The notes under the pieces: generated by a model
What the model was told of the DNA's origin: nothing
Database searches by the model: none
The model's input: the letters and a program-made list of their open reading frames with translations, nothing else
In this document: positions 1,334-21,268 of the stretch, piece after piece
Layout: the number at the start of each line of letters is the position of its first letter
Position numbering within the stretch: position 1 is the stretch's first letter
IMG/VR virus record: IMGVR_UViG_3300033153_011703
Span: 1 to 25,097 of that record
Reading direction: 5' to 3' (one strand)
From: a virus
DNA length: 25,097 bases
Translations under genes and position numbers: made by a program

Positions 1334-1366
1334 TGTATCTCCCTTTTAGAGTTTTGTTTTGCTTGA

Positions 1367-1609: not shown

Positions 1610-1615
1610 AGGGTG

Positions 1616-1644: not shown

Positions 1645-1769
1645 GGTTTATTTTGAGTTGTTTTAATAATTATATAATGGTGTAGAATTAAATTAATATT
1701 GAAATGTTTTTGTGTTAATGAGGGAGAAAGATGGTTTATATATAGTGGTGTTGTTTGTTATGTGGTGGC

Positions 1770-1973
1770 TTCACGTGACAATAGGGAAAATATTTCCTTG
1801 TTTTGAGCAAAGTCATGTAAAGTCGCCTTTCATATAATACTAAAAGATATTTATATTAATTAGGGGTTATATATTAATTTAATATATATTAGGTATTATA
1901 AGAGACACGACATCACATGACTTTAGATTTTGGGTATATTTGGGAGATGTAGTGCTTATGAGATTCACGTGAC
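1770..1973. promoter_or_regulatory. Array of four TCACRTGAC sites (putative operators)
   Basis: TTCACGTGAC occurs at 1770-1779 and again at 1964-1973. TCACATGAC (one change) is at 1913-1921, and its inverse-strand relative TTACATGAC lies at 1820-1812. The 10-bp arms AAAGTCATGT (1809-1818) and ACATGACTTT (1915-1924) are exact inverted copies. The eight-base cores are centred at 1774.5, 1816.5, 1916.5 and 1968.5, so the outer pairs are 42 and 52 bp apart, about four and five helical turns. The last site is centred about 59 bp upstream of the predicted rightward start point, a usual position for an activator. The protein that would bind is not identified. Confidence 0.55.
1868..1888. repeat. AT-rich 21-bp palindrome
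   Basis: TATATATTAA (1868-1877) and TTAATATATA (1879-1888) are perfect inverted arms around one base. The element lies near the middle of the four-site array. In such AT-rich sequence it may be chance. If functional, it could be a DNA-unwinding or binding element. Confidence 0.4.
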
Positions 1974-1993
1974 CGTGCAAGGTTAGAAAGTTC

Positions 1994-2021
1994 TTGACAA
2001 TTATTGTTGAATTATTATATA
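1994..2021 (+). promoter_or_regulatory. Rightward late promoter, leaderless
   Basis: TTGACA (1994-1999), a 16-bp spacer and TATATA (2016-2021) give a strong sigma70-like promoter. An alternative -10 of TATATG has an 18-bp spacer. The predicted start is about 2028, the first base of the small-terminase ATG. No Shine-Dalgarno lies between the -10 and the ATG. It probably starts the late transcript covering all genes to its right. Confidence 0.75.
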
Positions 2022-6660: not shown

Positions 6661-6666
6661 AGGAGG
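6661..6666 (+). promoter_or_regulatory. Strong ribosome site fixing the coat start
   Basis: AGGAGG lies 6 nt before a TTG at 6673. No ATG or GTG in the coat frame is nearby, so this perfect site decides the TTG start. A rare start codon with an ideal site fits tightly set, high-level expression. Confidence 0.8.
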
Positions 6667-6672
6667 CCAATT

Positions 6673-7953
6673 TTGGCCAATGAATTTAGTAAAGAAGAGG
6701 TCGTTGCGTTTGAGGATCTTGTATTAGGATTCGATGATTATCTCGTAATGACTCGTAATGTAAACCATTATAATACCGATATGACCAACATGGAACGGTC
6801 AAATTATACAATTTGGCGGCCAATAACGTATATTGCTGAATCGTTTGATGGAACTGCCGGAACCGACATTTCATCGAACTTCACTGATATAACTCAGTTG
6901 TCTGTTCCTTCTCAGGTCAACATTAATCGAACTGTTGCCTGGAAGATGAATGCCCTTGAACTAAATGATGATTTGCAAAATAATCTTTTCGGTGACGCTG
7001 CGAAACAGAAACTTGCCAGTGACATTAACGTCAGTTTATTGGATCTTGCATCGGCGCAGGGAACTTTGGTTGTTAAACGGACAGGAGCTGCTGCCGGGTT
7101 TGCTGATATTGCTGAATGTGAAGCATTAATGAATGAACAGGGTGTGTCAACGGGTGACAGAATTATTGCTTTATCAACTCGTGATTATAACTTGATGGCC
7201 GCAGATCTTGGTGGTCGTGGAACCTTGGCACCACCTAAGACATTAAAGGCTTATGAAGAAGCTTTTGTTGGACGTGTAGCCGGGTTTGATGCGTGGAAGC
7301 TTGATTATGCCAATGCTGGCACAGCTGCTGCAGGAGCTACAGTGCAAGTTGATGGTGCGGATCAGGATCATACTCCTCTTGGTGGCGAATCTTCATCAAC
7401 TGCCGGAGAAGTCAATGTTGATAATCGATATCAAAGCCTTACTATTACTGTTACTTCAGGCGCAGTTGCTGTTGGTGATAGTTTCACAATCGCGGGTGTT
7501 TATGCAGTGCATCATATCACAAAGTTGAGCACTGGTCAGTTAAAAACATTTCGGATTATTAGCATTGTTTCTGGTGCAGGGGATGATGGTGTGATTAAGA
7601 TATCACCAGCCATCGTTGCTAATGCTGGAACTTCTGATGCAGAAGCACAATATCAGAATGTTGATTCTGTTCCTGCTGATGATGCTGCATTGGTATTTTT
7701 GAATGTTGCGGCATCGAAGATCAATCCGTTCTGGCGTAAAAATGCCTTAGAAATTCTTCCGGGACGTTTGGCTATTCCGACTGGCTCTGGCGCAGGAGTT
7801 ATAGTTGGAACAACGGAACAGGGAATTCAGTTGAAATTGACAAAACAATATGATATCAATACGGCGATAAACAAATATCGACTTGATACACTATATGGTG
7901 TAGTTTGTTTAAATCCTGAGATGTGTGGTATTATATTATTTAATCAAACTTAA
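6673..7953 (+). CDS. Major capsid protein, P22 coat (gp5) type
   Basis: This 426-aa protein is the main shell subunit with an HK97-like fold. The length is close to P22 gp5 (430 aa). The N-terminal part contains MTRNVNHYNTDMTNMERSNY and TIWRP. The middle holds the family stretch DNRYQSLTITV followed by AGVYAVHHITKLSTGQLKTF (about 250-295), then NPFWRKNALEILPGRLAIPT, and the C-terminus is YRLDTLYGVVCLNPEMCG. The region around residues 215-345 should include the coat insertion domain. It starts with TTG behind AGGAGG. A strong hairpin follows the stop, which would limit transcription of the less abundant connector genes downstream. Confidence 0.95.
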   Translation: MANEFSKEEVVAFEDLVLGFDDYLVMTRNVNHYNTDMTNMERSNYTIWRPITYIAESFDGTAGTDISSNFTDITQLSVPSQVNINRTVAWKMNALELNDDLQNNLFGDAAKQKLASDINVSLLDLASAQGTLVVKRTGAAAGFADIAECEALMNEQGVSTGDRIIALSTRDYNLMAADLGGRGTLAPPKTLKAYEEAFVGRVAGFDAWKLDYANAGTAAAGATVQVDGADQDHTPLGGESSSTAGEVNVDNRYQSLTITVTSGAVAVGDSFTIAGVYAVHHITKLSTGQLKTFRIISIVSGAGDDGVIKISPAIVANAGTSDAEAQYQNVDSVPADDAALVFLNVAASKINPFWRKNALEILPGRLAIPTGSGAGVIVGTTEQGIQLKLTKQYDINTAINKYRLDTLYGVVCLNPEMCGIILFNQT

Positions 7954-7961
7954 ACTTTAAC

Positions 7962-7995
7962 ATATCAAGAGGAGTATTTCTACTCCTCTTGATAT
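7962..7995 (+). terminator. Hairpin after the coat gene (attenuator or terminator)
   Basis: A perfect 15-bp inverted repeat (ATATCAAGAGGAGTA, loop TTTC, and its complement) begins 9 nt after the coat stop. Only AATTT follows, not a long T-run, so it is likely to be a partial terminator or an mRNA-stabilising hairpin. The next gene starts 20 nt later, so some read-through is needed. Confidence 0.75.
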
Positions 7996-8015
7996 AATTT
8001 GAAAAGGAAAACAAA

Positions 8016-8375
8016 ATGGCTAAAATTATTGTAGGACGTGGAACTGGTAAACAAACAAGTATGGTTTATAAACATCCCGGACCAACTCAGCTTCAGGATG
8101 GTGGTTATACAACCAAAGTCATTCCTATAAAGGAAATTGAAGAATATCTTAAAAAGGGATGGTTCAGAAACCCGGTTGAAGCAAAGAAAAATTCTACTGC
8201 ACCGGAACCTGTTAAAACTTCCGATGTAAAACAAATTGGAAAAGAACTTGAAAAAAAACAAGTTGAACTTGATTCAAATTTAAAAGATCTTGAAAAAAGA
8301 GAGAAAGAACTCTCTGATAAAGAAAAAGAATTTGATAATAAAGAAAAAGTTTTGCAGACAGGCAAAAAAAAATAA
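8016..8375 (+). CDS. Small coiled-coil protein between coat and gp4-like gene
   Basis: This 119-aa protein has two parts. Residues 1-55 contain YKHPGPTQLQDGGYTTKVIP and EEYLKKGWF, a pattern I have seen in small phage head-region proteins (HPG, then a GW motif). Residues 72-115 form a continuous charged coiled coil (LEKREKELSDKEKEFDNKEK). There is no signal peptide. It starts at ATG 8016 behind AAGGAAA, just after the hairpin. P22 has no equivalent gene here. Its position suggests a head-completion or decoration role, but that is only inference. Confidence 0.75.
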   Translation: MAKIIVGRGTGKQTSMVYKHPGPTQLQDGGYTTKVIPIKEIEEYLKKGWFRNPVEAKKNSTAPEPVKTSDVKQIGKELEKKQVELDSNLKDLEKREKELSDKEKEFDNKEKVLQTGKKK

Positions 8376-8385
8376 AGGTTAAAAT

Positions 8386-8868
8386 ATGCCGTGGACAAAG
8401 CGACAATTTATTGAAAAAGCTTATGGTGAACTTGGATTAGCCAGTTATTTTGCTGATTTAGATCCAAGTGAACTTGAAGATGCAATGCAGCGTTTGGATG
8501 CAATGATGGCAACTTGGAATGCAGCTGGCATCAGAATTGGATATCCAATCCCATCAAACCCAAAGAATAGTGATTTGGATCAAGACACTGGTGTTCTGGA
8601 TTCAGCTAATGAAGCAATATTTTTAAATCTTGCAGTGAGACTTGCACCAAATTTTGGTAAACAAGCTTTTTCAGATACAAAATCTTTAGCAAGAGAAGCT
8701 TACGATGGATTGTTAGCTTTATCGGCAAAACCAAGACAAAAACAATTACCGGAAACAATGCCAACTGGACAGGGGCAAAAAGGATGGAGAGATGGTCCTG
8801 GAACATTTTATCCAAGACAATCTGACAGATTAGAAGCTGGTGACGACAATACGATAGAATTTGAATAG
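8386..8868 (+). CDS. Tail accessory factor, P22 gp4-like
   Basis: This 160-aa protein should bind the portal after packaging and build the neck to which gp10 attaches; P22 gp4 (166 aa) also has peptidoglycan hydrolase activity. The family pattern is clear: W-KRQFIEKAYGELGL at the N-terminus, EDAMQRLDAMMATWNAAGIRIGYP (about 31-54), EAIFLNLAVRLAPNFGK (about 76-92), and an extended C-terminus ending in a GWRDGPGTFYP stretch. It starts at ATG 8386 with AAAGG upstream. Its place two genes after the coat fits the P22 order. Confidence 0.9.
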   Translation: MPWTKRQFIEKAYGELGLASYFADLDPSELEDAMQRLDAMMATWNAAGIRIGYPIPSNPKNSDLDQDTGVLDSANEAIFLNLAVRLAPNFGKQAFSDTKSLAREAYDGLLALSAKPRQKQLPETMPTGQGQKGWRDGPGTFYPRQSDRLEAGDDNTIEFE

Positions 8869-8876
8869 GAGATAAG

Positions 8877-9350
8877 ATGAAAATATTATTTTTAATTATT
8901 TTATTGATCTTGGTGTTAAGTTCTATTTCTTTTGCGCAAGATTATGATGGAAGATTTTCTGTTTCTTATTGGGACACTCTCATGCCAGATGATAGTGGAA
9001 CAATTAAAATCGATACGCTTTATTCTCCTTCGTTAAGGATGATTGGTAGATTTTTTAATTTTCTGGTGAATGTTATATCAGGAACAAAAGATACTAATTT
9101 TGTTGATGATTCAATGTTTATTGATTTACAGATGTCTTTTGATGGAATTACCTGGAAAACAATTCCAATTGATACTGCTCTTGATATAGGAAGGGTAATT
9201 CAAGAAGATATACTCGATGCTGATGCAACCGTTTTGCCTCCGTTTGGGAGAATGAGATTCATACATTGGGACAGCATTAAAGACGCAGAAGGTGTTGTTG
9301 ATACTCCTGTTTATAATAAAAGAATTGAACTTTTGTATAAAGGTATATAA
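8877..9350 (+). CDS. Exported protein with Sec signal peptide, gp4-gp10 interval
   Basis: Residues 1-20 (MKILFLIILLILVLSSISFA) form a typical signal peptide, with cleavage expected after SFA and Gln at +1. The mature part (about 137 aa) has no recognised family. FIDLQMSFDGITWKTI suggests a beta-rich fold, and there are no Cys residues or lipobox. ATG 8877 follows TAGGAGATAAG, a strong ribosome site. The gene is wedged between two core connector genes, so it should be made with the virion proteins yet exported. Whether the hydrophobic start is really cleaved is not shown by sequence alone. Confidence 0.8.
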   Translation: MKILFLIILLILVLSSISFAQDYDGRFSVSYWDTLMPDDSGTIKIDTLYSPSLRMIGRFFNFLVNVISGTKDTNFVDDSMFIDLQMSFDGITWKTIPIDTALDIGRVIQEDILDADATVLPPFGRMRFIHWDSIKDAEGVVDTPVYNKRIELLYKGI

Positions 9351-9351
9351 G

Positions 9352-9813
9352 ATGGCATATTTAAAAATAAATCAATTAACAGCAGTTGATTCGTTGCAAG
9401 CTGGTGATAATATTATTATTTTTGATGTGAGCAATAGTGATTCTCGAAAAGCATCATTAACAATTTTGACAGAATATTTGCAAGATCAACTGGTATTTCC
9501 AAGTTTAACAACACAGTATAATGCTCCATCAGCAACAGCCTTCTCCGTGCAGATAACAGACGGCAGTGCAAGTATTCATTTAATTTTGACACCAGTGGCT
9601 ACTTATGCAGATGGCGAAATAGTTCTACCCGCAGTAGCAAATTGTGTTGATAAACAAGAAGTTTTGGTTAATTGCACTCAAATTGTCACGACTTTAGTTG
9701 TTGATGGTAATGGAGCAACCGTGACCGGAGAACCATCTACACTTGCTGCAGCGAATGAATTTTTCAGGTTAAAATTTGATTCGATAACATCGACTTGGTA
9801 TAGGATCGGATAA
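9352..9813 (+). CDS. Conserved podovirus structural protein, unknown role
   Basis: This 153-aa protein begins MAYLKINQLTAVDSLQAGDN followed by IIIFDVSNSDSRKASLTILTEYL. That opening recurs in small podovirus proteins encoded next to tail genes. The remainder is beta-rich and rich in Thr, Ala and Val (ADGEIVLPAVANCVDKQEVL) and ends EFFRLKFDSITSTWYRIG, like a small beta-sandwich or fibre module. I use ATG 9352, 1 nt after the previous stop; an upstream in-frame ATG would lie inside the exported-protein gene. The last base overlaps the gp10-like start in TAATG. It has no signal peptide, unlike its left neighbour. Confidence 0.8.
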   Translation: MAYLKINQLTAVDSLQAGDNIIIFDVSNSDSRKASLTILTEYLQDQLVFPSLTTQYNAPSATAFSVQITDGSASIHLILTPVATYADGEIVLPAVANCVDKQEVLVNCTQIVTTLVVDGNGATVTGEPSTLAAANEFFRLKFDSITSTWYRIG

Positions 9814-11216
9814 TGAAGATCCCAATTATGAATGGAGTTTTTACGGATAAAAATTCTGATTTTAGGATTTCTTATCCGAGGAATTTAATTCCTGTGGCTC
9901 AACCAAATGGAATTTCAAATGGATATTTACGTCCAGCTGAAGGTATTGCGCCATGGATTTTTGGATCAGGTAAAGATCGTGGTGGAATTAATTGGAATGG
10001 TTTTTGTTATAGAGTTTCCGGTCAGAAACTTAATTTAGTAAATCGTGATGGTTCTGTTGTTGATCTTGGTTCAGTTGGTGGTAAAGGACAAGTTACACTT
10101 GATTATTCATTTGATTATTTAGGAATTGCATCGAGTAACAAATTTTATTTATGGGATGGAGCAGGGAATTTGACTAAAGTTACAGACCCGGATCTTGGTG
10201 ATGTTGTTGATTTTATATGGGTTGACGGATATTTTATGACAACTGATGGTGAAAGTTTGGTTGTAACTGATTTAGATGACCCTTTTTCAGTTAATCCGAA
10301 ACATTATGCTTCTTCAGAAGTTGATCCTGATCCTGTTTTAGCTTTATTGAAATTACATGATGAACCGTATGCATTAAATAGATATACAATTGAACCTTTT
10401 ACTAATGTTGGTGGAAAAGGTTTTCCATTTATACCAATTGAAGGTGCGTATATTGATCGCGGTGTGATTGGAACTCATGCATGTTGTGTTTTTCTTGAAA
10501 GAATTGCATTTCTTGGAAGTAATAGAAATGAACCTCCTTCTATATGGATAGGTGCAAATGGGCAGTCATCAAAATTAGCGACAAGAGAAATTGATATAAT
10601 TTTGAATGGATATAGTGAAGAAATTTTATCAGATGTTTTATTAGAATCTCGTTTTGATAGAGGTCATCAATTGCTTTATATTCATCTTCCGGATCAAACT
10701 CTTGTTTATGATGCAACAACTTCACAGGCAACTGAAACTCCTGTGTGGTTTAAATTAACATCTGGATTAAATGAAATTGGGCAATACCTTGCTAAGAATA
10801 TGGTGTGGTGCTATGACAAATGGATCGTTGGTCACCCCATAAATTCCAATATTGGAGTATTAGATTATGATATATCTTCTCATTGGGGTGAGGAAGTTAC
10901 ATGGGAATTTGGAACATTAATAATGTATAATGGTACGAATAATGCTATTTTCCATGAATTAGAACTTATTTGTTTATCTGGAAAATCTGTTTTAGGAGAT
11001 GATCCTAAAATCTCAACATCATATTCAACTGATGGAAAAGTATGGAGTATGCCAAAAAGTATTGGTATTGGAAAACAAGGTGAGAGAAATAAAAAAATAA
11101 GATGGTTTCGACAAGGAATAATGCAGAATTTTAGAATACAAAAATTTCAAGGAACCAGTAAAGCAAGAATTTCTATTGCTGGATTAGAAGCAAGACTTGA
11201 GGGGATGGCATTTTAA
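9813..11216 (+). CDS. Packaged DNA stabilisation protein, P22 gp10-like
   Basis: This 467-aa protein (P22 gp10 is 472 aa) should form the ring below gp4 that closes the portal and holds the needle. Matches to the family include PRNLIPVAQPNGISNGYLRP with the following EGI near the N-terminus. GINWNGFCYRVSG and LDYSFDYLGIASSNKFYLWD come next, then FIWVDGYFMTTDGESLVVTD, RIAFLGSNRNEPPSIW and YLAKNMVWCYDKWIVGH. This is a beta-propeller-like pattern. It starts at ATG 9813, overlapping the previous stop by one base, and is coupled in the same way to the next gene. It looks complete. Confidence 0.95.
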   Translation: MKIPIMNGVFTDKNSDFRISYPRNLIPVAQPNGISNGYLRPAEGIAPWIFGSGKDRGGINWNGFCYRVSGQKLNLVNRDGSVVDLGSVGGKGQVTLDYSFDYLGIASSNKFYLWDGAGNLTKVTDPDLGDVVDFIWVDGYFMTTDGESLVVTDLDDPFSVNPKHYASSEVDPDPVLALLKLHDEPYALNRYTIEPFTNVGGKGFPFIPIEGAYIDRGVIGTHACCVFLERIAFLGSNRNEPPSIWIGANGQSSKLATREIDIILNGYSEEILSDVLLESRFDRGHQLLYIHLPDQTLVYDATTSQATETPVWFKLTSGLNEIGQYLAKNMVWCYDKWIVGHPINSNIGVLDYDISSHWGEEVTWEFGTLIMYNGTNNAIFHELELICLSGKSVLGDDPKISTSYSTDGKVWSMPKSIGIGKQGERNKKIRWFRQGIMQNFRIQKFQGTSKARISIAGLEARLEGMAF

Positions 11217-11497
11217 TGGTAAGACCTATTGTTCCAACAGAATCTCAATTGTCAAAATTTCTTGAAGATCCTCGATTGGTTCGAGCTTTTGAAAATTTGT
11301 TTAAAGGTAGGAACAAAGGTGTTTTTTTTGATACAACAGATCAATTTGCATCTGAAATAAATACACCAACTGTGGTAACTTTTGATAATACACAAATTTC
11401 TCGTGGAGTAGAAATTGATACAAAGAATACTTCTCGAATTATAGTTTCAGAAGCAGGAACATATGAATTTAAATATACCTTGCAGTTAAAGGAGTAA
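11216..11497 (+). CDS. N-terminal half of a jelly-roll protein at the needle position
   Basis: The 93-aa product has a short helical start (SQLSKFLEDPRLVRAFENLF), then GVFFDTTDQFASEINTPTVV with TFDN, RGVEID, and finally SRIIVSEAGTYEFKYTLQL before KE and stop. This is the first half of a jelly-roll domain common in phage fibre and knob proteins, which usually continues past the QL strand into a -IWLRKNGTDVPNS- like segment. Here it ends at QLKE, and the codons for KE plus the stop form the next gene's ribosome site (AAAGGAGTAA). P22 has its needle gene (gp26) in this place, and Sf6's needle ends in a TNF-like knob. A truncated needle-type protein is my inference; it could also work as a half that pairs with 19625. 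Confidence 0.7.
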   Translation: MVRPIVPTESQLSKFLEDPRLVRAFENLFKGRNKGVFFDTTDQFASEINTPTVVTFDNTQISRGVEIDTKNTSRIIVSEAGTYEFKYTLQLKE

Positions 11498-11500
11498 AGA

Positions 11501-11959
11501 ATGCCTGGTTTTACAAATAAAGGAAAAACATGGTATTTAGAAATAACGCTTCAAGGTGGAACTTTAGTAACTAATTATTATATTGCATTAATCACGTCAG
11601 CTAATGTTCCGGATGCAGATACGAATTTGATGTCAGATCTTACAGAAATTAATACTGGGAATGGATATACGTCTGGAGGATATCAATTAACTCCAGATGC
11701 TACTGATTTTGATAATTTAACTGAAGATGATACAAATAATAGAGGATCGATTCAAATTAAAGATATTGTGTGGAATGCATCTGGTGGAACTATTCCATCA
11801 TCAGGTGATGGAGCAAGGTATGCCGTGCTTACTGATGATAATGGAACTGTTGCGAATAGAGAAGTTTATGGTTTTTTTGATTTACAAAGTAATCGCGCTG
11901 TTAGTGATGGTTCATCAATAACTTTACGAAATTGTGAAATCAGATTAAATGAGTCATAA
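11501..11959 (+). CDS. Conserved phage structural protein, unknown role
   Basis: This 152-aa protein matches a small family found in many environmental phage genomes: FTNKGKTWYLEI at the start, IALITSANVPDADTNLMSDL, EINTGNGYTSGGYQL, IQIKDIVWNASGGTIPSSGD with GARYAVLTDDNG, and EVYGFFDLQSNRAVSDG near the end. It is beta-rich and has no signal peptide. The start is ATG 11501 behind AAAGGAGTAAAGA, which overlaps the previous stop. A virion or fibre-base role is likely from neighbours, but no activity is known to me. Confidence 0.8.
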   Translation: MPGFTNKGKTWYLEITLQGGTLVTNYYIALITSANVPDADTNLMSDLTEINTGNGYTSGGYQLTPDATDFDNLTEDDTNNRGSIQIKDIVWNASGGTIPSSGDGARYAVLTDDNGTVANREVYGFFDLQSNRAVSDGSSITLRNCEIRLNES

Positions 11960-11968
11960 GGAGAAAAT

Positions 11969-14278
11969 GTGAATTATAATAGTAAAAGATCTTCTTTGGT
12001 TATGGTGGTATTGTTTATTGCATTTTTTGTTATTTTTGCAGTTAGATCACATACTTTTTCTCCACCAACTGATTCGTCTGATGTTAGATATTGGAATTAT
12101 ATGCACTATACCGGTGATGGCATGACCGGTGATCTTGATATGAATCAAAATGATATTCTTGATGTGAATAGAATCGATGTTGATACTGTTGGCGGGCCAG
12201 GAACAACTACTTCGGACACGATTGATGTGACTACGATATATACTGATACTCTTATTCTTAATGGTGTTAAAATTACTGATCTTGAAGGTTCTAATTTATC
12301 TGTTACAACGACCGTCTTAAACGCTTCTGGCGGCGGTGGAGGTTGGAATTTAACCGATTCACTTGGCCGCTGGGTTGGTTGGGGCGGCGTTGTTGTAACA
12401 TTAGCCGGAGATACCGTTTATATTCGATTTGAAGGCAGTTCAGATTTTGATACTTCTGGCGGTGTTGTTTCATTAGCGGCTGACCGAATCGATTCTACTC
12501 ATATAAAAAGTGGAGCGATTAGTTTACCCAGTGATTTAGCTATTTTTACTGAAGCAGAGCTTGAAGGAAGATTATCTGATGTAACGGCGTTGTTTACAAA
12601 TAATGTTACAGGGGACGTTACTGTTTCTGGTGGGACTTCGACTCTTGGTGCAAATACCGTAGAAACTGGAAATATTGTAGATCAGACAATTACTCTTGAT
12701 GATATTGACACATCATCAACTTTTGTAGTTGGAGAAATGTATCACGGAACTTCTGCCGATCCAACAGAAAGATATGCTACCGCTCAAATACTTTCCGACA
12801 GTCTTGCTCTTGCTCTACTTAAATCTGGTGGAACAATGGTTGGCGGGGCAACTATTAATATGAATAACGGTCACATTATTGGTGGCAATTTTTATCAAAC
12901 TGATACAATGGTTATTGGTAATGACACCAGTTATGCCGACCATATACTCGCTTATTTAGTAAGGCTTGAAGTTCACAATGCGACAGGACAGACTTTAGAT
13001 ATGGGAACCCCGGTTTATATTTCTGGAGCGACTGGTGACTTGCCTAACGCTGATTCAGCAAGGGCCGATAATGCTGCAATGATGCCTGCTATTGGGTTAA
13101 TTGAGCATGATATTACCAACGGTTCTGGTGGTTATGTTTTGTTCAATGGTAAAATGGGAGGGTTGAATACAAATGGTTTATCTGAAGGCGATCCTGTATA
13201 TGTAGCTCCCACTGGTGGATGGACGACAACAAAACCGACTGGCACTGATTTAATCCAAAAAATTGGTGAAGTTACCAGAGTTAATGTTTCACAGGGAGAT
13301 ATTTATATATTCGGAGCGGGTAGAACAAATGATATTCCAAATGTCGCTACAATCATAGGTAATTGGATCAATACCAATTATCCTTGGGCTGATGATGAAG
13401 TTGCTGATAATATCACGGCATCTAATTATTTATTAAGTTCCGTTTTTCCTGACAGTTCGTATTGGAAAATCGACACCGATACAATTTATTATTTACATTC
13501 TAATGGCGATACATTAATAAGAATTGAAATAGATGATGGCAATGATGCTGTTACAATGCGAGTTGATAACAGGTTATCATTTAAAGTTTTGGCTGATACC
13601 GTTGGGGAGCCGGGCAAAACGACATGCGATACTCTTGATGTGATTAATATAATTCCTGACACGGTTATGATTAGTGATGATAAAATTACTGATTTTCTTG
13701 GAGATCACTTAGCCCTTACCGGAAGCACTATTGGAGTTGAAAATGATTTTCTTTTAAACGATGGTGATGTTGGAACAGGAGTTTTTGATTTTGGTGGTGC
13801 AACTTCGCTTGAAATACCGAATGGAACTGCTCCTGCTCCAACTAACGAAGGTGAGATATTTCAAGATACTGACGATGATATGCTTGAAGGCACTGATGGA
13901 ACTGATGATTTCATATTTTCAGAAAGATATAAAACATTTTTGTTTGAAATTGATAATCCTGAATTATTAGAATGCGATACTATTAAAATTCCAATTAGAG
14001 GTCGATATCCGGGGGGAATAATTATAGATTCCATTGGTGTAATGACATCGACTTCGACTTCATACTCGTGTGATTTTGAAGAATGGACAAACATGGATCA
14101 TTCATCGGGTTCGGAAAGCGCGATTGCCACAGTTGCCACATCAACATCATTCGAGGCGGCATCCGGCTCGATTGCCCATACTATTGAATACGGAAATATT
14201 ATAGCTGTTGATCTTCCCGCAGACGATATTCGTCAAGTAACAATATGGATAAGATTTGAGGTTTTAGGAAATGATTAA
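11969..14278 (+). CDS. Large fibre-like protein with N-terminal membrane segment
   Basis: This 769-aa protein reads like a modular tail fibre. Residues 10-27 (LVMVVLFIAFFVIFAV) are a membrane segment or uncleaved signal, which is unusual for a fibre. GDGMTGDLDMNQNDIL (about 49-64) and GGTMVGGATINMNNGHIIGG (about 290-310) are fibre shaft-type motifs. About 335-450 is a beta domain with TPVYISGATGDLP and EGDPVYVAPTGGW, also seen in other phage fibres. DDEVADNITASNYLLSSVFP lies near 474. A segment at about 72-118 (DTVGGPGTTTSDTIDV, KITDLEGSNL) recurs at about 543-590 (DTVGEPGKTTCDTLDV, KITDFLGDHL). GTG 11969 follows AAGGAGAAAAT; the overlapping ATG reads straight into TGA. Confidence 0.75.
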   Translation: MNYNSKRSSLVMVVLFIAFFVIFAVRSHTFSPPTDSSDVRYWNYMHYTGDGMTGDLDMNQNDILDVNRIDVDTVGGPGTTTSDTIDVTTIYTDTLILNGVKITDLEGSNLSVTTTVLNASGGGGGWNLTDSLGRWVGWGGVVVTLAGDTVYIRFEGSSDFDTSGGVVSLAADRIDSTHIKSGAISLPSDLAIFTEAELEGRLSDVTALFTNNVTGDVTVSGGTSTLGANTVETGNIVDQTITLDDIDTSSTFVVGEMYHGTSADPTERYATAQILSDSLALALLKSGGTMVGGATINMNNGHIIGGNFYQTDTMVIGNDTSYADHILAYLVRLEVHNATGQTLDMGTPVYISGATGDLPNADSARADNAAMMPAIGLIEHDITNGSGGYVLFNGKMGGLNTNGLSEGDPVYVAPTGGWTTTKPTGTDLIQKIGEVTRVNVSQGDIYIFGAGRTNDIPNVATIIGNWINTNYPWADDEVADNITASNYLLSSVFPDSSYWKIDTDTIYYLHSNGDTLIRIEIDDGNDAVTMRVDNRLSFKVLADTVGEPGKTTCDTLDVINIIPDTVMISDDKITDFLGDHLALTGSTIGVENDFLLNDGDVGTGVFDFGGATSLEIPNGTAPAPTNEGEIFQDTDDDMLEGTDGTDDFIFSERYKTFLFEIDNPELLECDTIKIPIRGRYPGGIIIDSIGVMTSTSTSYSCDFEEWTNMDHSSGSESAIATVATSTSFEAASGSIAHTIEYGNIIAVDLPADDIRQVTIWIRFEVLGND

Positions 14279-15344
14279 ATATTTATTAATATTGTTGATA
14301 CCCGCTGTTTTATTGGGACAGGATGATTTTATTTACATAGGAAGTGAAGAAGAAAATTCGTCTTATTCAAATTACGCTAATCAAATGGGTTGGTTTGTAG
14401 TCACAGTTGGAGATAATGATGTAGTCGTAGATTCATTTAATATACGCTGTTATGCTTCTGATGATGATGTTAATGTAAAATTAGGACTTTATGATGATGA
14501 TAGTGGCTTCCCGGGTTCTCCGATAGATTCAACTTGGATAGGCGATCCCCCTGTTGGCATAGGAAATGTTTCTTGGGTTCGATTAGGGGCGATTGAAGGG
14601 GTCACATTAATAGCTAATACAGATTATTGGCTTGCTTTACAAGCTAATGATTGGGTAAGCCATTCGTTTTATGTTGGACGGAATTTGAATGGTGATGTTG
14701 GCGATGAAAGACATAAAAATAATGCCGAGCCTTTTGTTGAGTGGCCTGATCCTGCCGATGATGCTCTGAGCAGTATTGTAGTTCCTGATTTTTATTTGAC
14801 TGTATCGGAAAATGTTGTCATTTTAAGACCAGACAGTGATGAAACAACAACAGATTGGGATAAATATTTTAGCTCAACATATTTTTATGAAAATGTTGAA
14901 TTACTTGATACAAAAGAGTTATACTACATTCAAAGATACGAAGCGTTTTCAGCCGGATATGAGAATGCTATTATTTCTTTTGGAACAACTGCCCCGACTA
15001 TTGACGGGACGATTGATTCCGTAAAGGCTATTGCCTCGGTGAATAGGGGCGGGTCTAATGCAAATATAGATTCAGCAAGGGTGCGTTTTTATGATGGAGC
15101 AGACATTTCTTATGGCAATCTTTGGAATAATGATTCTTTACTTGATGATGTTTACACTGTCTATTATCAATTAATTGATTGTCCTGATGGAACTTGGGGA
15201 CAAACCGATATAGATGATTTAGAGATTGGATTTAAGGCAAGCGCACCTGATAAGTGGAGTGGATTTGTTTCCAACATGTTACATGCCAGGGTTTACTGGT
15301 CACCAGTAACCGGGAGTGGAAAGGTGATTGAAATAATACAATGA
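14271..15344 (+). CDS. Exported beta-sandwich protein
   Basis: This 357-aa protein has a 16-residue signal peptide (MIKYLLILLIPAVLLG) with Gln at +1. Residues about 20-130 resemble a carbohydrate-binding-like beta sandwich often found in secreted bacterial proteins: VVDSFNIRCYASDDDVNVKL, GLYDDDSGFPGSPI, and LIANTDYWLALQAND (the YWLAL strand). A second beta-rich half follows (about 190-350), ending MLHARVYWSPVTGSG. The gene overlaps the fibre gene by 8 nt and its own stop overlaps the next start (ATGA), so it should be translated in step with both. A ligand-binding or adhesion role is inference. Confidence 0.8.
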   Translation: MIKYLLILLIPAVLLGQDDFIYIGSEEENSSYSNYANQMGWFVVTVGDNDVVVDSFNIRCYASDDDVNVKLGLYDDDSGFPGSPIDSTWIGDPPVGIGNVSWVRLGAIEGVTLIANTDYWLALQANDWVSHSFYVGRNLNGDVGDERHKNNAEPFVEWPDPADDALSSIVVPDFYLTVSENVVILRPDSDETTTDWDKYFSSTYFYENVELLDTKELYYIQRYEAFSAGYENAIISFGTTAPTIDGTIDSVKAIASVNRGGSNANIDSARVRFYDGADISYGNLWNNDSLLDDVYTVYYQLIDCPDGTWGQTDIDDLEIGFKASAPDKWSGFVSNMLHARVYWSPVTGSGKVIEIIQ

Positions 15345-17047
15345 AAAAATTATTAATAATATTATCGATGGTTTTAATGCCGATTTTTGCATTTGCAACT
15401 GTTACTGAAACTAATGGTAATGATGCCGTTAATCAGACTATTCAAAGTATGGCTCCAGCAGAGAAGGATACTATTATTGTTCAAGCCGATGACACTTTAG
15501 AAATTACAGGCTCTTGGCAAGCAGGCACAACAGATACAACCTGTTCATTTATATATGTAAGACAGGATGGAGTGCTACGTTGGACTGGAAATTCAAGAGC
15601 AAATATTGCTCACTTATGGTTAGGCAATAAAGGTGATGGAGATCCTTGGGACATTGATTATGGTGGAACATTAGAATTAGGTGCATCCGACACTCTTGCT
15701 TTATGGAAATTAGCTGATAGACCTTCATCTGATTACAGTATTAGTGGTGATGGTGATGGAGGGGCAGGTGCCGATGCACAAGTGACTATTGACGGTGGTT
15801 CTTGGTCAACGATGGCAGTTATTATGGGAATGGAAGGACAAGAAGCTCGTCCAAGTCCTGTAATATGGTGGAACGATAATCAATTTCATTTTAATGCAAG
15901 TTATTGTAAATTTCGCAGGTTAGGCGATACAACGGGTTATCCGGGGTTAAGTTATTGGACGGTTGCAAGTGATGTAGTTATAGAAAATTGTATATTTGAT
16001 TCAGCTTTTTACTGGTCACCCGGCGGTGATGGCGATACCCTTTTAAATTGTTCTTTATTTATGTATGAAGATGCCAATTGGCCTGTTGTTAGTATTAAAG
16101 GAGATTTTGAGACTCGATATTCTATTAAGGATTGTGACTTTATAGGTAACCAAGAGAACGTAGAGGACGCAGGAGAAAGGGCATTATTAGGTGTGCAAAG
16201 ACTTGATTCATTAACGATTGATGGTTGCACCTTTGTTGGTATTAATGGGAATTTTACAAATGACTATGTTTTTGGATTGGGGATTGATGCTGATGATATT
16301 GACACTTTAACAATCCGGAGTTGTGTTTTTGATACTTTTACTTTTTGTATTAGTTTAGTTAATATTACAGAAGGAATGATTGAGGATAATCTTATAGGTT
16401 TTGGAAGGCACGAGGGATTAATCTATGACCCTAATGATGGTGACAATACTGTCATTCAGAATAATCAGTTTTATGGAACGAATAGTGCATTGGGACATTT
16501 ACTCTTTTATTTTGATTCTGATGGTAGTGATGATGGTGAAAATCCAAATATTTCAGTCTTATATAATACATTCGCATCTGAGGATGGTGAAATATCATTA
16601 ATGCAATGGGGATCACCAAGTCCGCCTGATGCCAGTGGTTTTACTATAAGTGGATGGGATATCATTGGCAATGCATTTGCAGGTGCTGGAAGTGATATTA
16701 CCTTAGACGATTCAACACATATAGTTTGTGATGAATTTAAACATAATGCTTATGATTCTATTGGGTATGATCCAAATTCTGATTTAATTATTTCTGGCTC
16801 TGCTTATTCTATTCCCGATTCAAATCTTAATGACCAATCATCTTATGGTTTTCTCGATTCGATTGTGCATGATTATAGACTTGCTGATGGTTCCCCGATG
16901 ATAGATGCCGCTGATTCAGTTTATTGGGTTCAAGTTTATATACCAGCTGACAGTTCAACTGCGCCAGGGAATATAGGATATTATCAAGTTGTTGCTGGAA
17001 TAATTAAACATGTTATGAAAACTCATTTAAGGAATGTTCATTTTTGA
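15341..17047 (+). CDS. Exported right-handed beta-helix protein
   Basis: This 568-aa protein begins with a 19-residue signal peptide (MKKLLIILSMVLMPIFAFA). Residues about 190-450 show repeating short strands typical of a parallel beta helix: VVIENCIFDSAFY, YSIKDCDFIGNQ, LTIDGCTFVGING, LTIRSCVFDTFT, GMIEDNLIGFG, TVIQNNQFYG. DYRLADGSPMIDAADS (511-526) is the closing motif seen in many secreted beta-helix proteins. Phage tailspikes use this fold to cut surface polysaccharide, but no catalytic residues can be assigned. ATG 15341 overlaps the previous TGA, with no ribosome site of its own, so translation depends on the upstream gene. Confidence 0.85.
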   Translation: MKKLLIILSMVLMPIFAFATVTETNGNDAVNQTIQSMAPAEKDTIIVQADDTLEITGSWQAGTTDTTCSFIYVRQDGVLRWTGNSRANIAHLWLGNKGDGDPWDIDYGGTLELGASDTLALWKLADRPSSDYSISGDGDGGAGADAQVTIDGGSWSTMAVIMGMEGQEARPSPVIWWNDNQFHFNASYCKFRRLGDTTGYPGLSYWTVASDVVIENCIFDSAFYWSPGGDGDTLLNCSLFMYEDANWPVVSIKGDFETRYSIKDCDFIGNQENVEDAGERALLGVQRLDSLTIDGCTFVGINGNFTNDYVFGLGIDADDIDTLTIRSCVFDTFTFCISLVNITEGMIEDNLIGFGRHEGLIYDPNDGDNTVIQNNQFYGTNSALGHLLFYFDSDGSDDGENPNISVLYNTFASEDGEISLMQWGSPSPPDASGFTISGWDIIGNAFAGAGSDITLDDSTHIVCDEFKHNAYDSIGYDPNSDLIISGSAYSIPDSNLNDQSSYGFLDSIVHDYRLADGSPMIDAADSVYWVQVYIPADSSTAPGNIGYYQVVAGIIKHVMKTHLRNVHF

Positions 17048-19056
17048 AAAAGTTATTATACATATTGTTATTAATTCCAATATTGGCGATTGCCATAGAT
17101 GAACCGGGCGATCATATAAATACTTGGCATTACTGTCTTGGATTCGGATGGGATGAGCCACATCCTCACCAAGAATTAACTCTTGATAGTGTAGGTGCGT
17201 TTGATTGGGTAGTATTTTCTACTAATTCAGATGATATTGATTCGATTAGAAACGCCAATCCCGATATTATAATTACTAATTATACAGACCATATGTTTGC
17301 ATCAGGCCATATATACAATGAGCTGTATAAAGGAAGTGTTGCTGGAGATTTTGACCCTGAAGGTGTAAGCTATCATTATGCTGTTGATGGAGTAATGACA
17401 AATGAGGTTGTAACTTGGACTATTGATGACGCAACAGAAGATAGATTTGGGGTAGATATTATTGATAATAATGGACAGGGTTGTTTTATTTACGATGCTT
17501 CAGTTCCGTCATTTACGGACATTACTGTGGCGGCCTATACTACCGGAGGGAATGAAGCGTTTTGTCAAGACGATGATGACTGTCTTTATTTAGGAACATT
17601 GGGACGTTTCAAAGAAGCCACGTTTGATTTATCAACTCCCGCTCATGCTGACTGGGCAGGGATATGGGAATATTATAATGGTTCTACTTGGTCGGCATTA
17701 TCTGGTATTTCAGACGGCACCAGTGATATGACTCAAGATGGTAAAGTTGAATGGACGGTTCCGACAACAGCACAATGGTCAAGAACTGATTCAGGAACGG
17801 TTGGCGATGAAGCACTGATTGATTGGTGGGTCAGACTTCGATGCACTGATGCCGGGACAACTCAGCCAAGTATGGTTAATGTCGTTGGGCAATCTTATAT
17901 AACTGATGAATCTGGCGACTTAGGTATTCCGGGTTGGGATCCGGCAAATGATACCGACGACGATGGCGTTTGGGACACTAATAATAATTCAGATGCGACA
18001 GCTACTTTTCCGCATCATTCAAGGATATTAAGTTTATGGGGATTTGATTTAAACAGTGGATATTATAATAAGCGGGATAGTATCTTTTTAAGGATGTATA
18101 GAGAGTATATATTTAATGATGTTGTTACAAAAAGTGGTAATGGTTATTATGGAGATGACTGGGGATTCATGGGACTCTTTGGTCTTGAAAGATTAAAGTT
18201 AGAGTGGTTCATTGATAATGCTTCTACTTGGCAGGAAGCTGATTCCTTCCAAAATTCTTGGTCTTGGAATTTACAGTGTCGAGCGGTTAGGGATACATTA
18301 GTCGCCGCCAATAGCCCTGATACCTTAGCTGGTGGAAATGTCGGAGCATTAGCATCTATCCGAAAGTATTGGCCTCACGATGATTCAACTACTTCTCCAA
18401 TGCACTATCAATTAGTTGAAGGTTGGTCTAATATGGAAAGTGGTGGGGCAAGATGGGTTGCGGATGTTAATGGGTCTGACAGAAGGTTGCTATTAGACCC
18501 ACTGGTTGCGGCGGCAAAGGGACAAAGCCTGTTATTGCAACAACTTTATCAGGATGATTGGCTTTCGGAAAGATGGGATAATTATACAATAGCCAGTCAT
18601 TATATGATACAAGGGCCGGGAATTTATTACGGAATAGGGAAAGATGGAGACTCTTATGGTAACAGGGATATCACTATGCCAGAAGCAGTAAAATTTGATA
18701 TTGGCGATCCATTAATAGCAAACGACACCTTAAATTTAGCGTATTTTGATTTAGATGATAGCGTGAGTTTTTCTTTTGACGCTACCGATTCAACAAGCCA
18801 TGAGGTTCACATATTAGGGAGATATTTTGATAACGCCTTAGTTTTATGTCGATATAAATGGGCTTGGAACTCTGTTTATGATTCAAGTAGTGGGATAGTG
18901 GTTACGCTTCCAAATTATTATAGAAGATTGAAATCGGATAGCACGGTATTAGATGAGGCTGATACAGTTGTTTTATTAGCGGGTGACGGTGCAATACTGA
19001 TGTTAGAAGAGGCCGAAGCACCAACTAATAAAAAATTAATGCTTAGAAGGGATTGA
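17044..19056 (+). CDS. Exported glycoside-hydrolase-like protein with inserted beta module
   Basis: This 670-aa protein has a signal peptide (residues 1-17, ending AIA). FDWVVFSTNSDDIDSIRNAN (about 57-76) resembles the opening strands of GHL15-type barrel hydrolases. A beta module (about 95-290, with IWEYYNGSTWSALSGISDGT and WWVRLRC) looks inserted into the barrel. DTDDDGVWD (303-311) fits a DxDxDGxxD calcium loop. The barrel resumes with NGYYGDDWG (366-374, possible acid residues), IASHYMIQGPGIYYGIG and PEAVKFDIGDPL, and the C-terminal beta domain (YFDNALVLCRYKW, YYRRL, GAILML) is typical of glycosidases. The start is TTG 17044, overlapping the previous TGA. A polysaccharide substrate is inferred; the catalytic pair is not proven. 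Confidence 0.75.
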   Translation: MKKLLYILLLIPILAIAIDEPGDHINTWHYCLGFGWDEPHPHQELTLDSVGAFDWVVFSTNSDDIDSIRNANPDIIITNYTDHMFASGHIYNELYKGSVAGDFDPEGVSYHYAVDGVMTNEVVTWTIDDATEDRFGVDIIDNNGQGCFIYDASVPSFTDITVAAYTTGGNEAFCQDDDDCLYLGTLGRFKEATFDLSTPAHADWAGIWEYYNGSTWSALSGISDGTSDMTQDGKVEWTVPTTAQWSRTDSGTVGDEALIDWWVRLRCTDAGTTQPSMVNVVGQSYITDESGDLGIPGWDPANDTDDDGVWDTNNNSDATATFPHHSRILSLWGFDLNSGYYNKRDSIFLRMYREYIFNDVVTKSGNGYYGDDWGFMGLFGLERLKLEWFIDNASTWQEADSFQNSWSWNLQCRAVRDTLVAANSPDTLAGGNVGALASIRKYWPHDDSTTSPMHYQLVEGWSNMESGGARWVADVNGSDRRLLLDPLVAAAKGQSLLLQQLYQDDWLSERWDNYTIASHYMIQGPGIYYGIGKDGDSYGNRDITMPEAVKFDIGDPLIANDTLNLAYFDLDDSVSFSFDATDSTSHEVHILGRYFDNALVLCRYKWAWNSVYDSSSGIVVTLPNYYRRLKSDSTVLDEADTVVLLAGDGAILMLEEAEAPTNKKLMLRRD

Positions 19057-19060
19057 TAAA

Positions 19061-19621
19061 ATGAAAAAATTAATAATCATCATTATGCTTTGTTTTCTGG
19101 CTATAATCAATTCTGTGGCTCAGAGATCAGTTGATAATGTGCCTGGATGGATTACTTTTAATAAAGCAATCCCATGTGATTCTGTTTTAATTTATATTGG
19201 TGATGATTCTACCAGTTGGGATTTAGGTCGAACTCACATGGTTGAGGTCTTTTCGGACGATTCAAAAAACTGGGCTTATAAGCCGACATTAACCGAAAAC
19301 GGAAATCAGGTCGTTAAAATCATTTATTATCCAACTGGTGGCGATTCTGCCTTTTTTGCAGGAACATGGTACAACGATTATGTTGAGTTAGATACGACAA
19401 TATTGGCCAGTGTTGGAGATGTGGCACAAGAAGTTCTTGACACAATGGGAATATATTTAACAATTATAGGAGGATCTAAATCTCATGCTGCTAAAGCATC
19501 CAATTGTGATTCAATATTTATTATAAACACAAGTGGAGATACTACTGATGTATTGGAATATTGGCATGTTGGAGGATCATCAGGTGATTTTCCTGATAGT
19601 GTTGTAGGAATAGATTGGTAA
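19061..19621 (+). CDS. Exported protein, last of the secreted set
   Basis: This 186-aa protein has a 20-residue signal peptide (MKKLIIIIMLCFLAIINSVA) followed by Gln at +1. Cys 11 lies within the hydrophobic core and not in a lipobox, so a lipoprotein is unlikely. The mature part is beta-rich and acidic, with WITFNKAIPCDSVLIYIGDD and a centre containing KIIYYPTGGDSAFFAGTWYN. No family is recognised. ATG 19061 follows AAGGGATTGATAAA. Its first 12 coding bases are identical to those of the beta-helix gene. Confidence 0.8.
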   Translation: MKKLIIIIMLCFLAIINSVAQRSVDNVPGWITFNKAIPCDSVLIYIGDDSTSWDLGRTHMVEVFSDDSKNWAYKPTLTENGNQVVKIIYYPTGGDSAFFAGTWYNDYVELDTTILASVGDVAQEVLDTMGIYLTIIGGSKSHAAKASNCDSIFIINTSGDTTDVLEYWHVGGSSGDFPDSVVGIDW

Positions 19622-19624
19622 ATT

Positions 19625-20086
19625 ATGGGCGGTGGAAGATATAGAGGAGCTGGCAAACGAGATCATCGATATGGTGATCGTGAAACTACTGTTAGTGATT
19701 CAATTGTTGTCACTCCAGATCCTATTTCAGCAGTAGTTACTGTAGTTGATCCAACAGTAATTCTTGGCTCAATTGTTGTCACTCCAGATCCTATTTCAGC
19801 AGTAGTTACTGTAGTTGATCCAACAGTAATTATATCAGATGCCGGAGTAATTACTGTTTGGGCAAGAGTGAATGGGGTTGATGTTCCGAATACTGGTGCT
19901 GTGAAAAAAGTTGTTGGAAGTGATGTTTTAACATTTATTCATGAGATTGAATTGGAAAAAGATGATTATTATGAATTAGTATTTGCTGTTGAAGATATAA
20001 GTGTTTATCTTGATGCAATACCAATTTCGTCAGTTGGCCCGGAAACTCCGTCAGCTGTCTTAAATGTAAAGAAGGCAAAAGTATGA
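19625..20086 (+). CDS. C-terminal half of a jelly-roll protein behind a repeat stalk
   Basis: The 153-aa product starts with a basic, Gly-rich stretch (MGGGRYRGAGKRDHRYGDRE), then carries the unit SIVVTPDPISAVVTVVDPTV twice (about residues 26-69). The rest is ITVWARVNGVDVPNTGAVKK, then HEIELEKDDYYELVFAVED and PETPSAVLNVKKAKV. This last part matches the second half of the phage jelly-roll domain whose first half is the 93-aa protein at 11216. There is no signal peptide. The stop overlaps the next start (ATGA). It may complete the split fold by pairing, or be a truncated copy on a new stalk. Confidence 0.75.
   Translation: MGGGRYRGAGKRDHRYGDRETTVSDSIVVTPDPISAVVTVVDPTVILGSIVVTPDPISAVVTVVDPTVIISDAGVITVWARVNGVDVPNTGAVKKVVGSDVLTFIHEIELEKDDYYELVFAVEDISVYLDAIPISSVGPETPSAVLNVKKAKV
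19700..19831 (+). repeat. Perfect 63-bp tandem repeat, 69-bp period
   Basis: A 63-bp unit (19700-19762) recurs without a mismatch at 19769-19831, separated by CTTGGC. It encodes 21 residues (SIVVTPDPISAVVTVVDPTVI) twice, with Leu-Gly between. Lack of any silent difference suggests a recent duplication or ongoing correction. It lies just before the split jelly-roll half. Confidence 0.9.
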
Positions 20087-20532
20087 CACATGATGAATCA
20101 TTAAAACTTCATTTAAAAGAAACACTCATTTTACCAAAAGATGCAGTTGATTGGCTTATGATGGTTTGGACTTCTATTCAAACTTTTGATGATTATGCAG
20201 ACGGTGATAAAGTGAAACGAGATGATCTTGATTCTTTAATATGGAATATGGTTATTGGAATGCCACAAAATACATTCTATTTTAAACATTCACAATCATT
20301 GTGGCCTGTTATGGCAACAGCAATATTAAAATGGCAGGCATCAGACACTGTTGAAAGATCTGGAAAAGCTGATGAAATGTCATTCGCTTGGCGTGCAAGT
20401 TTCTATGATGTTGTTTTATTTGTTTACGCGCTTGTTCACGGTCATGGAATGGCTACAAAAAATGCTCATATAATTATGAAGTTGTATGGAGAAGATTTTA
20501 AAAATTATATACAGGAGGTAAACAATGCCTGA
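20083..20532 (+). CDS. Conserved podovirus protein at the gp14 position
   Basis: This 149-aa, mostly helical protein contains LILPKDAVDWLMMVWTSIQT, KWQASDTVER, WRASFYDVVLFVYALVHGHG and YGEDFKNYIQEV. The WRASFYDVV and HG stretch recurs in podovirus proteins encoded before the ejection genes. In P22 the gene here is 14, of similar size, which assists ejection-protein incorporation. I assign by size and order, not by clear sequence identity to gp14. It overlaps both neighbours (ATGA at its start; 8 nt at its end). Confidence 0.75.
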   Translation: MTHDESLKLHLKETLILPKDAVDWLMMVWTSIQTFDDYADGDKVKRDDLDSLIWNMVIGMPQNTFYFKHSQSLWPVMATAILKWQASDTVERSGKADEMSFAWRASFYDVVLFVYALVHGHGMATKNAHIIMKLYGEDFKNYIQEVNNA

Positions 20533-21268
20533 TCCTGTTACTGGAATAACTGCTGGAGCCACTATTTTTTCCAGCGTTTCTAATGCAAATGCTCAAAAGA
20601 AATCCGCAGCCACGGCTGCTGGGGCACAAACAAGAGCAAGTGAAGCGGCTATTTCTGAGAATAGAAGACAGTTTGAAAGAACCCAAGAATTATTAAGTCC
20701 CTATGTTTCTGCCGGGACAGATGCTTTAAGTAGAGAAAGAGATTTATCCGGTCTTAATGGTCAAGAAGCACAGGCAAAAGCGATTGCCGCTATTGAATCT
20801 TCTCCGGGATTTCAAAATGTAGCGAGTCAAGGTGAGAAAGCGATACTCGCTAATGCCTCTGCTACAGGTGGATTAAGAGGTGGTAACACACAGGGTTTTC
20901 TCGCTGAATTTAGACCAAATTTATTGCAAGAATATCTTGAAAGAGAATCTGCAAGATTAACCGGATTAAGAACAGCGGGTCAAAATGCTGCTGCTGGAAC
21001 TGGCGCGGCAGGATTACAAACTGGCGCAAATATTGGTAATATACAGCTTGGAATAGGAGATATTCAAGCTCGTGAAGCTCTTGCTCGTGGTCAAGCTGGA
21101 ATAGATCTTACTGGTGGAATTACTGAAGGTATTGGAATAATAACTTCTGGTTATGAAAATAGAAATAGAAATAGGTCTGGTGATGGATATAATTATTTAC
21201 CATCATCAACTCCAATGGGGCCAGCTGGTCCTGCGGATGAAGCTGATTGGCCAAGAGGGGGATTTTAA
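20525..21268 (+). CDS. Ejection protein 1, P22 gp7-like
   Basis: This 247-aa protein (P22 gp7 is 229 aa) should be packed in the head and injected before the DNA. The family signature is strong: RRQFERTQELLSPYVSAGTD, IESSPGFQNVASQGEKAI, then NASATGGLRGGNTQG and FRPNLLQEYLERESARL. The C-terminal half is Gly/Ala-rich with repeated small residues (GQNAAAGTGAAGLQTGANIG), apt for a membrane-crossing role. It starts at ATG 20525 behind AGGAGGTAAACA, one of the best ribosome sites in the window, inside the previous gene's end. No P22-type N-terminal propeptide was checked. Confidence 0.85.
   Translation: MPDPVTGITAGATIFSSVSNANAQKKSAATAAGAQTRASEAAISENRRQFERTQELLSPYVSAGTDALSRERDLSGLNGQEAQAKAIAAIESSPGFQNVASQGEKAILANASATGGLRGGNTQGFLAEFRPNLLQEYLERESARLTGLRTAGQNAAAGTGAAGLQTGANIGNIQLGIGDIQAREALARGQAGIDLTGGITEGIGIITSGYENRNRNRSGDGYNYLPSSTPMGPAGPADEADWPRGGF

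What the first reader, a model, noticed from the sequence alone, without database searches (positions are those of the whole stretch)
14271..19621. Cassette of signal-peptide proteins inside a P22-like virion operon
Seen: four consecutive genes (14271, 15341, 17044, 19061) start with clear Sec signal peptides, are coupled by overlaps or tiny gaps to each other, and sit between core virion genes. A fifth is at 8877. Known: podovirus structural proteins assemble in the cytoplasm and do not carry signal peptides. Inference: the phage encodes a set of periplasmic or secreted products (binding, beta-helix, hydrolase-like) expressed at the time of virion assembly, perhaps to modify the host surface, clear polysaccharide at release, or form an exported complex. 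Alternatively the hydrophobic N-termini act as docking or trimerisation segments on the particle.
Basis: partly seen in the sequence, partly recalled or inferred. Interest (0 to 1): 0.85.

Follow-up and report, generated by a model that had tools for sequence, protein, structure and literature searches.

The report
Signal-peptide adhesin cassette splits phage needle
A P22-like phage carries, in the middle of its split tail-needle gene, a block of surface-binding and carbohydrate-processing-type proteins that bear export signals; similar blocks in marine Cellulophaga phages are found in the virus particles, so the likely meaning is that this phage sends its host-binding parts out of the cytoplasm before or while they join the particle.

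Summary
In P22-like relatives about 1% of ORFs pass the same test (24 of 2,643); here 6 of 22 do.

(1) The cassette interrupts a gene. In relatives the gene after gp10/Hc3 is one tail-needle-like gene ending in a TNF/C1q-type knob. Here its first knob half is 11216-11497 and its second half is 19844-20083 inside gene 19625. The cut falls in a predicted 4-residue loop, and all nine invariant residues survive. (2) The arrangement has a precedent. In six Cellulophaga phages of three families almost every adhesin/pectate-lyase gene of the block starts with a mostly Q-rule signal peptide, and in two of them the records say products were found in virions by MS/MS.

Best explanation: an exchangeable receptor-binding/depolymerase cassette for an FCB-type host, whose products use Sec and then join particles. 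Virion location and cleavage are not shown for this phage.

The parts
8877..9350 (+). Signal-peptide protein (157 aa, ISFA|QDYDG), placed between Ad3 and gene 9352, which are adjacent in relatives
   Evidence: no relatives found
9813..11216 (+). Hc3 / P22 gp10-like tail hub (upstream neighbour)
   Evidence: phrog_578 E 1e-96, PF11134, 80 relatives
11216..11497 (+). Tail-needle-like protein: N-terminal virion-binding motif, no shaft, first half of the TNF/C1q-like knob (11318-11494)
11501..11959 (+). Small phage protein, phrog_644 (unknown function), first gene of the inserted block
11969..14278 (+). Long fibre-like protein with hydrophobic N-terminus (signal peptide or anchor); aa about 335-460 match the middle domain of relatives' needles and tail fibres of other phages
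14271..15344 (+). Signal-peptide adhesin-like protein (VLLG|QDD) with choice-of-anchor R domain
   Evidence: NF041539 30.9 bits, cut-off 30
15341..17047 (+). Signal-peptide, probable right-handed beta-helix protein
   Evidence: PF13229 E 5.5e-4, 20.0 bits, below the cut-off of 25.9
17044..19056 (+). Signal-peptide protein, 670 aa, function unknown; aa about 152-281 weakly match a 735-kb phage and PDB 9efk
   Evidence: structure prediction failed
19061..19621 (+). Signal-peptide protein, 186 aa (NSVA|QRS), no known family
19625..20086 (+). Protein with two exact PDPIS-type repeats fused to the second half of the needle knob (19844-20083)
20083..20532 (+). phrog_21390 protein; lies between needle and gp7-like gene in several relatives
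20525..21268 (+). gp7-like DNA ejection protein (downstream virion neighbour)
   Evidence: phrog_598 E 1.7e-35

Best explanation
Genes 11501-19621 (plus 8877) are an acquired, exchangeable receptor-binding and glycan-processing module of a P22-like phage of an FCB-type bacterium (Bacteroidota or Ignavibacteria-like). The block entered the tail-needle gene and split its TNF/C1q-like knob at a loop. The products are made with the late virion operon, enter the Sec pathway and lose their signal peptide to signal peptidase I. They fold outside the cytoplasm and end up on the particle tip or surface, joining at or after lysis, where they bind and probably trim surface carbohydrate. Shown here: signal-like N-termini, operon coupling, position, split knob, and a virion-located precedent in other phages. 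Inferred: export, cleavage, assembly order, carbohydrate role and host group.
For: Sec-like N-termini, enriched over relatives. Three of five classical cleavage sites leave Q at +1, binomial p 6e-4 for an assumed 4% Q; high Q values are reported for Bacteroidetes and Ignavibacterium album (PMC5837995). Cellulophaga phages phi10:1, phi19:1, phi19:3, phi46:3, phi13:2 and Ingeline_1 have runs of signal-peptide adhesin/lyase genes; gp091-094 of phi10:1 and gp101-104 of phi19:1 are annotated from MS/MS proteomics. There one signal-peptide N-terminus is reused on different bodies and a near-identical lyase occurs in different phage families, as expected of an exchangeable virion module. Needle and fibre homology of 11969, adhesin domain of 14271, beta-helix hint in 15341. 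Split knob: 60 ORFs of fetched relatives hold both halves in one frame; the cut maps to the loop between strands 145-157 and 162-171 of the model.
Against: No virion proteomics for this phage and no homologues of 8877, 14271, 15341, 17044 or 19061 in the collections searched beyond one weak domain match, so their place in the particle is by analogy. Signal peptides were judged by a home-made rule. The virion pectate lyase of Cellulophaga phage phi14:2 has no signal peptide, so export is not required for such proteins. The Cellulophaga proteins are not detectably homologous to these. Shine-Dalgarno use is 73% here, as in P22-like relatives and unlike the Flavobacteriia phages checked, so a typical Flavobacteriia host is doubtful. 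How exported proteins would find particles made in the cytoplasm is not known.
Confidence: 0.5

Rival explanations
1. The products are secreted, non-virion accessory proteins (a moron-like set) that act on the host surface or surrounding polysaccharide during or after infection and never become part of the particle.
For: Clear Sec-type signals; Q-rule signal-peptide genes of unknown function in Porphyromonas gingivalis phages were proposed to modify the host envelope (PMC10367356); the block replaces no essential core gene; the needle tip domain is dispensable in P22 (PMC3741392).
Against: The block sits in the tail-tip position of the late operon with stop-start coupling and no promoter- or terminator-like excess; 11969 shares a domain with needles and tail fibres; comparable signal-peptide proteins of Cellulophaga phages are annotated from MS/MS proteomics as structural.
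Confidence: 0.27
2. The hydrophobic N-termini are not used for export; they stay uncleaved and dock or trimerise the adhesins on the virion, or insert into the host membrane at entry.
For: 11969 has a long, anchor-like hydrophobic stretch; in Cellulophaga phages the same N-terminus is reused on different bodies like a docking domain.
Against: The N-termini have full n/h/c anatomy and three of five leave Q at +1, which docking would not need; the virion pectate lyase of phi14:2 starts without such a segment.
Confidence: 0.13
3. The contig is a chimera: host genes for secreted surface proteins were joined to a phage by the assembler.
For: Single metagenome record; signal peptides and the choice-of-anchor domain are typical of bacterial surface proteins.
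Against: Both junctions lie in complementary halves of the same knob domain, which two independent assembly errors would hardly give; 11969 and 11501 are phage-like; GC content does not stand out; 8877 is a separate signal-peptide gene outside the block.
Confidence: 0.05

Closest known systems
Adhesin/pectate-lyase block of Cellulophaga phages phi10:1, phi19:1 (Assiduviridae), phi19:3, phi46:3, phi13:2 (Pachyviridae) and Ingeline_1 (Duneviridae)
   Same: Runs of coupled tail-region genes, nearly all starting with Sec-type signal peptides, mostly Q-rule; adhesin and lyase-type bodies; in phi10:1 and phi19:1 annotated as structural proteins from MS/MS. PMC8776804 notes signal peptides on lyases of Ingeline and Nekkels.
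   Different: No detectable sequence homology to the window proteins; not P22-like phages; the block does not split a needle gene; those phages rarely use Shine-Dalgarno sites.
Tail needle (gp26) of P22-like phages, Sf6/HS1 type with TNF-like knob
   Same: Position right after gp10/Hc3, conserved N-terminal motif within this phage group, TNF/C1q-like knob fold (PMC3741392).
   Different: Here the shaft is missing and the knob is divided between two genes, the halves about 8.3 kb apart; the link to gp26 itself is by position and fold, not sequence.
Q-rule signal-peptide genes in Porphyromonas gingivalis Nixviridae phages (PMC10367356)
   Same: Phage genes whose predicted signal peptidase I cleavage leaves N-terminal Gln.
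   Different: Their functions are unknown and the passage read proposes a role at the host envelope, not in the virion.

Membership tests
Sec / signal peptidase I substrates | Basic n-region, hydrophobic h-region, small residues at -3/-1 | tested here: met
   Classical cases 14271, 15341, 17044, 19061 plus 11969 by home-made test; 8877 by direct reading; 5 of 6 E. coli positives pass. SignalP not available.
Sec / signal peptidase I substrates | Export and cleavage in the host | not testable with these tools
   needs experiment
Bacteroidetes Q-rule substrates | Gln at +1 in most substrates | tested here: inconclusive
   3 of 5 classical sites (8877, 14271, 19061), p 6e-4 against an assumed 4%; small sample, sites assigned by eye
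Signal-peptide virion adhesin/lyase cassettes (Cellulophaga-phage type) | Consecutive signal-peptide genes in the tail region | tested here: met
Signal-peptide virion adhesin/lyase cassettes (Cellulophaga-phage type) | Products present in virions | not testable with these tools
   annotated from MS/MS only for the Cellulophaga phages
Signal-peptide virion adhesin/lyase cassettes (Cellulophaga-phage type) | Homology to the Cellulophaga proteins | tested here: not met
   phmmer against ORFs of the loci fetched by then, including L130 and L133, gave no hit for 8877, 14271, 15341, 17044, 19061
P22-like tail needle (gp26) | Gene directly after gp10/Hc3 | tested here: met
P22-like tail needle (gp26) | Coiled-coil shaft between N-terminus and tip | tested here: not met
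   about 7 residues between motif and knob, against 59-339 in nearly all relatives with the motif (one has 10)
P22-like tail needle (gp26) | Knob in one polypeptide with TNF-like fold | tested here: not met
   knob split into 11318-11494 and 19844-20083; the fold is TNF/C1q-like in an intact relative
T9SS cargo | C-terminal sorting domain | tested here: not met
   no such Pfam domain in any of the proteins at E 0.1
Moron | Own promoter and terminator | tested here: inconclusive
   no excess over shuffles in 6600-21000

The most novel reading that the evidence does not exclude
Part of a tailed phage's host-recognition apparatus is matured outside the cytoplasm: adhesins are exported by Sec, cleaved by signal peptidase I, and attached to particles only at or after lysis, while a tail-needle knob made as two polypeptides from both ends of the cassette reassembles at the tail tip.
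Probability: 0.25. Interest if true: 0.85.

Novelty: new variant of a known kind. Interest (0 to 1): 0.62.

Why it matters
Textbook tailed-phage assembly is cytoplasmic. Signal peptides on virion adhesins, here in a P22-like podovirus and, with MS/MS annotation, in Cellulophaga phages, would mean that some phages of FCB bacteria use the host export machinery to mature their receptor-binding parts. The literature found here mentions such signal peptides only in passing (PMC8776804, PMC10367356). The P22-like setting, where needle and tail assembly are well understood, and the split knob make the question testable.

Tried and rejected
Searches for relatives of 17044, 11969, 14271, 15341 and 8877 in IMG/VR (exact 8-residue seeds, so only fairly close relatives) gave none. 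tblastn against INPHARED phages gave no relatives for 14271, 15341, 8877 and 19061, only one domain of 11969 and a weak 17044 match. A scan of genome contigs with Hc3 found P22-like relatives in Acinetobacter, Massilia, Chromatiales, Spirochaetota and others, none with a signal-peptide cassette, so it did not fix the host. The genome search cannot draw relatives of a virus record. AlphaFold2 on 17044 without relatives failed (pLDDT 32), so no fold claim is made for it. An RNA intron joining the knob halves is not supported: no Rfam match. Clear target-site duplications or inverted repeats at the block's ends were not found. T9SS cargo was rejected for lack of a sorting domain.
Full report
Setting. 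The window is a 25,097-base IMG/VR virus record with a P22-like virion operon: TerL 2552, portal 3795, scaffold-like gene ending at 6660, major capsid 6673, adaptor Ad3 8386, gp10-like Hc3 9813, gp7-like ejection protein 20525. P22-like relatives were fetched with Hc3 (80 loci, 53-62% identity), with gene 19625 (29 loci), with the capsid protein (80 loci) and in bacterial genomes (13 loci).

The observation. Genes 8877, 14271, 15341, 17044 and 19061 start with basic, hydrophobic, small-residue segments of Sec type; 11969 has a longer hydrophobic stretch that may be cleaved or may anchor. The test is a home-made n/h/c rule; it accepts 5 of 6 textbook E. coli signal peptides, and SignalP was not available. 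Gene 8877 was judged by direct reading, because the script's automatic gene choice took an overlapping frame there. In relatives 14 of 1160, 2 of 403 and 8 of 1080 ORFs pass (loci partly overlap); here 6 of 22 genes do, Fisher p about 7e-7 against the first set. The genes are coupled by an 8-nt overlap, two 4-nt overlaps and gaps of 3-4 nt. No terminator- or promoter-like excess separates them from the operon.

The block interrupts a needle gene. In relatives the gene after Hc3 has an N-terminal motif (TRDQLAxFLxDxxxIRxFExLF), a variable middle and a C-terminal knob. AlphaFold2 on one intact relative gives the knob (residues 98-242) with pLDDT mostly above 90, and Foldseek places it among TNF/C1q-like folds: 4-1BBL, BclA, Caprin-2 C1q and the knob of the phage phi812 central spike. 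By position and fold this is the tail needle, whose Sf6/HS1 forms end in a TNF-like knob (PMC3741392); sequence similarity to gp26 itself was not shown. In the window the N-terminal motif is joined almost directly to the first knob half (gene 11216-11497), and the second half is residues 74-153 of gene 19625-20086. Joined in a script, the halves align end to end with relatives (E 5e-26). Sixty ORFs of fetched relatives contain both halves in one frame, and no relative was found with the halves in separate genes. The window's first gene ends at the position of relative residue 157 and the second half resumes after the loop 158-161, between strands 145-157 and 162-171. All nine residues invariant in 28 relatives are kept, so the halves are either still used together or were separated recently. 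The shaft is missing, and the 111-residue gene that follows the needle in many relatives is not found. The history is therefore more than a single clean insertion.

What the block encodes. 11501 is phrog_644. 11969 shares residues 335-460 with the middle domain of relatives' needles and with tail fibres of Synechococcus, Flavobacterium and other phages. 14271 has a choice-of-anchor R domain just over the NCBIfam cut-off. 15341 has a weak right-handed beta-helix match below the Pfam cut-off. 17044 and 19061 have no family; residues 152-281 of 17044 weakly match a 735-kb phage and PDB 9efk, and its structure prediction failed. The mature block proteins are very acidic (pI 4.0-4.2). A surface-binding and glycan-processing role is the natural reading but is not shown.

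A precedent. A survey of signal peptides in Bacteroidota phage records turned up Cellulophaga phage phi10:1, where five consecutive genes, two of them annotated pectate lyase and one tail fibre, all start with signal peptides, and gp091-094 are annotated as structural or virion proteins from MS/MS. phi19:1 gp101-104 are alike. The same holds for the adhesin/lyase blocks of phi19:3, phi46:3, phi13:2 and Ingeline_1, apart from one 71-residue protein in phi13:2. Most predicted cleavages leave Gln, the Bacteroidetes Q-rule (PMC5837995). One signal-peptide N-terminus is reused on different bodies, and a 97%-identical lyase occurs in phages of two families. So signal peptides and virion location occur together in nature. 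The counterexample is phi14:2, whose virion pectate lyase has no signal peptide.

Host. Three of five classical sites here leave Gln; high Q values are reported for Bacteroidetes and for Ignavibacterium album, low ones for spirochaetes. Shine-Dalgarno-like sites precede 73% of window genes, as in P22-like relatives (72% by a looser measure) and unlike the Flavobacteriia phages checked, where about 0-33% have one. An Ignavibacteria-like or other FCB host fits both; this is inference.

Mechanism and verdict. Most likely the block is a host-recognition module whose products are exported, cleaved and then carried by the particle; I give this 0.5. The main rival is a secreted, non-virion function (0.27); uncleaved docking segments (0.13) and a chimeric contig (0.05) are less likely. 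Export, cleavage and virion location are not shown for this phage. It is a new variant of a kind whose clearest known examples, the Cellulophaga phages, appear to have drawn only passing comment in the papers found here (PMC8776804, PMC10367356).

Noticed in passing
window 19700-19762 and 19769-19831: Exact 63-base direct repeat (69-base period) encoding SIVVTPDPISAVVTVVDPTVI, at the start of the gene carrying the second knob half; a similar repeat type fills a 1146-aa fibre-like protein in L110.
   Followed up: partly
L130 41847-48878, L133 27016-33153, L216 7365-15552, L217 720-9322, L218 3041-9449, L219 3336-9315: Cellulophaga phages from three families reuse near-identical signal-peptide N-termini (e.g. 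MKHTxxIVLFFILSLGLNAQT) on different adhesin and lyase bodies.
   Followed up: partly
window 17500-17890 (17044 aa about 152-281): A domain weakly shared with a 735-kb uncultured phage (LR756501) and with PDB 9efk orf18, apparently embedded in an unknown 670-aa protein.
   Followed up: no
window 1001-2000: GC drops to 0.29 upstream of the terminase small subunit, with only short minus-strand ORFs: a possible control region.
   Followed up: no
window 49-939 (-): Minus-strand gene matching PHROGs of unknown function 29643 and 7247.
   Followed up: no
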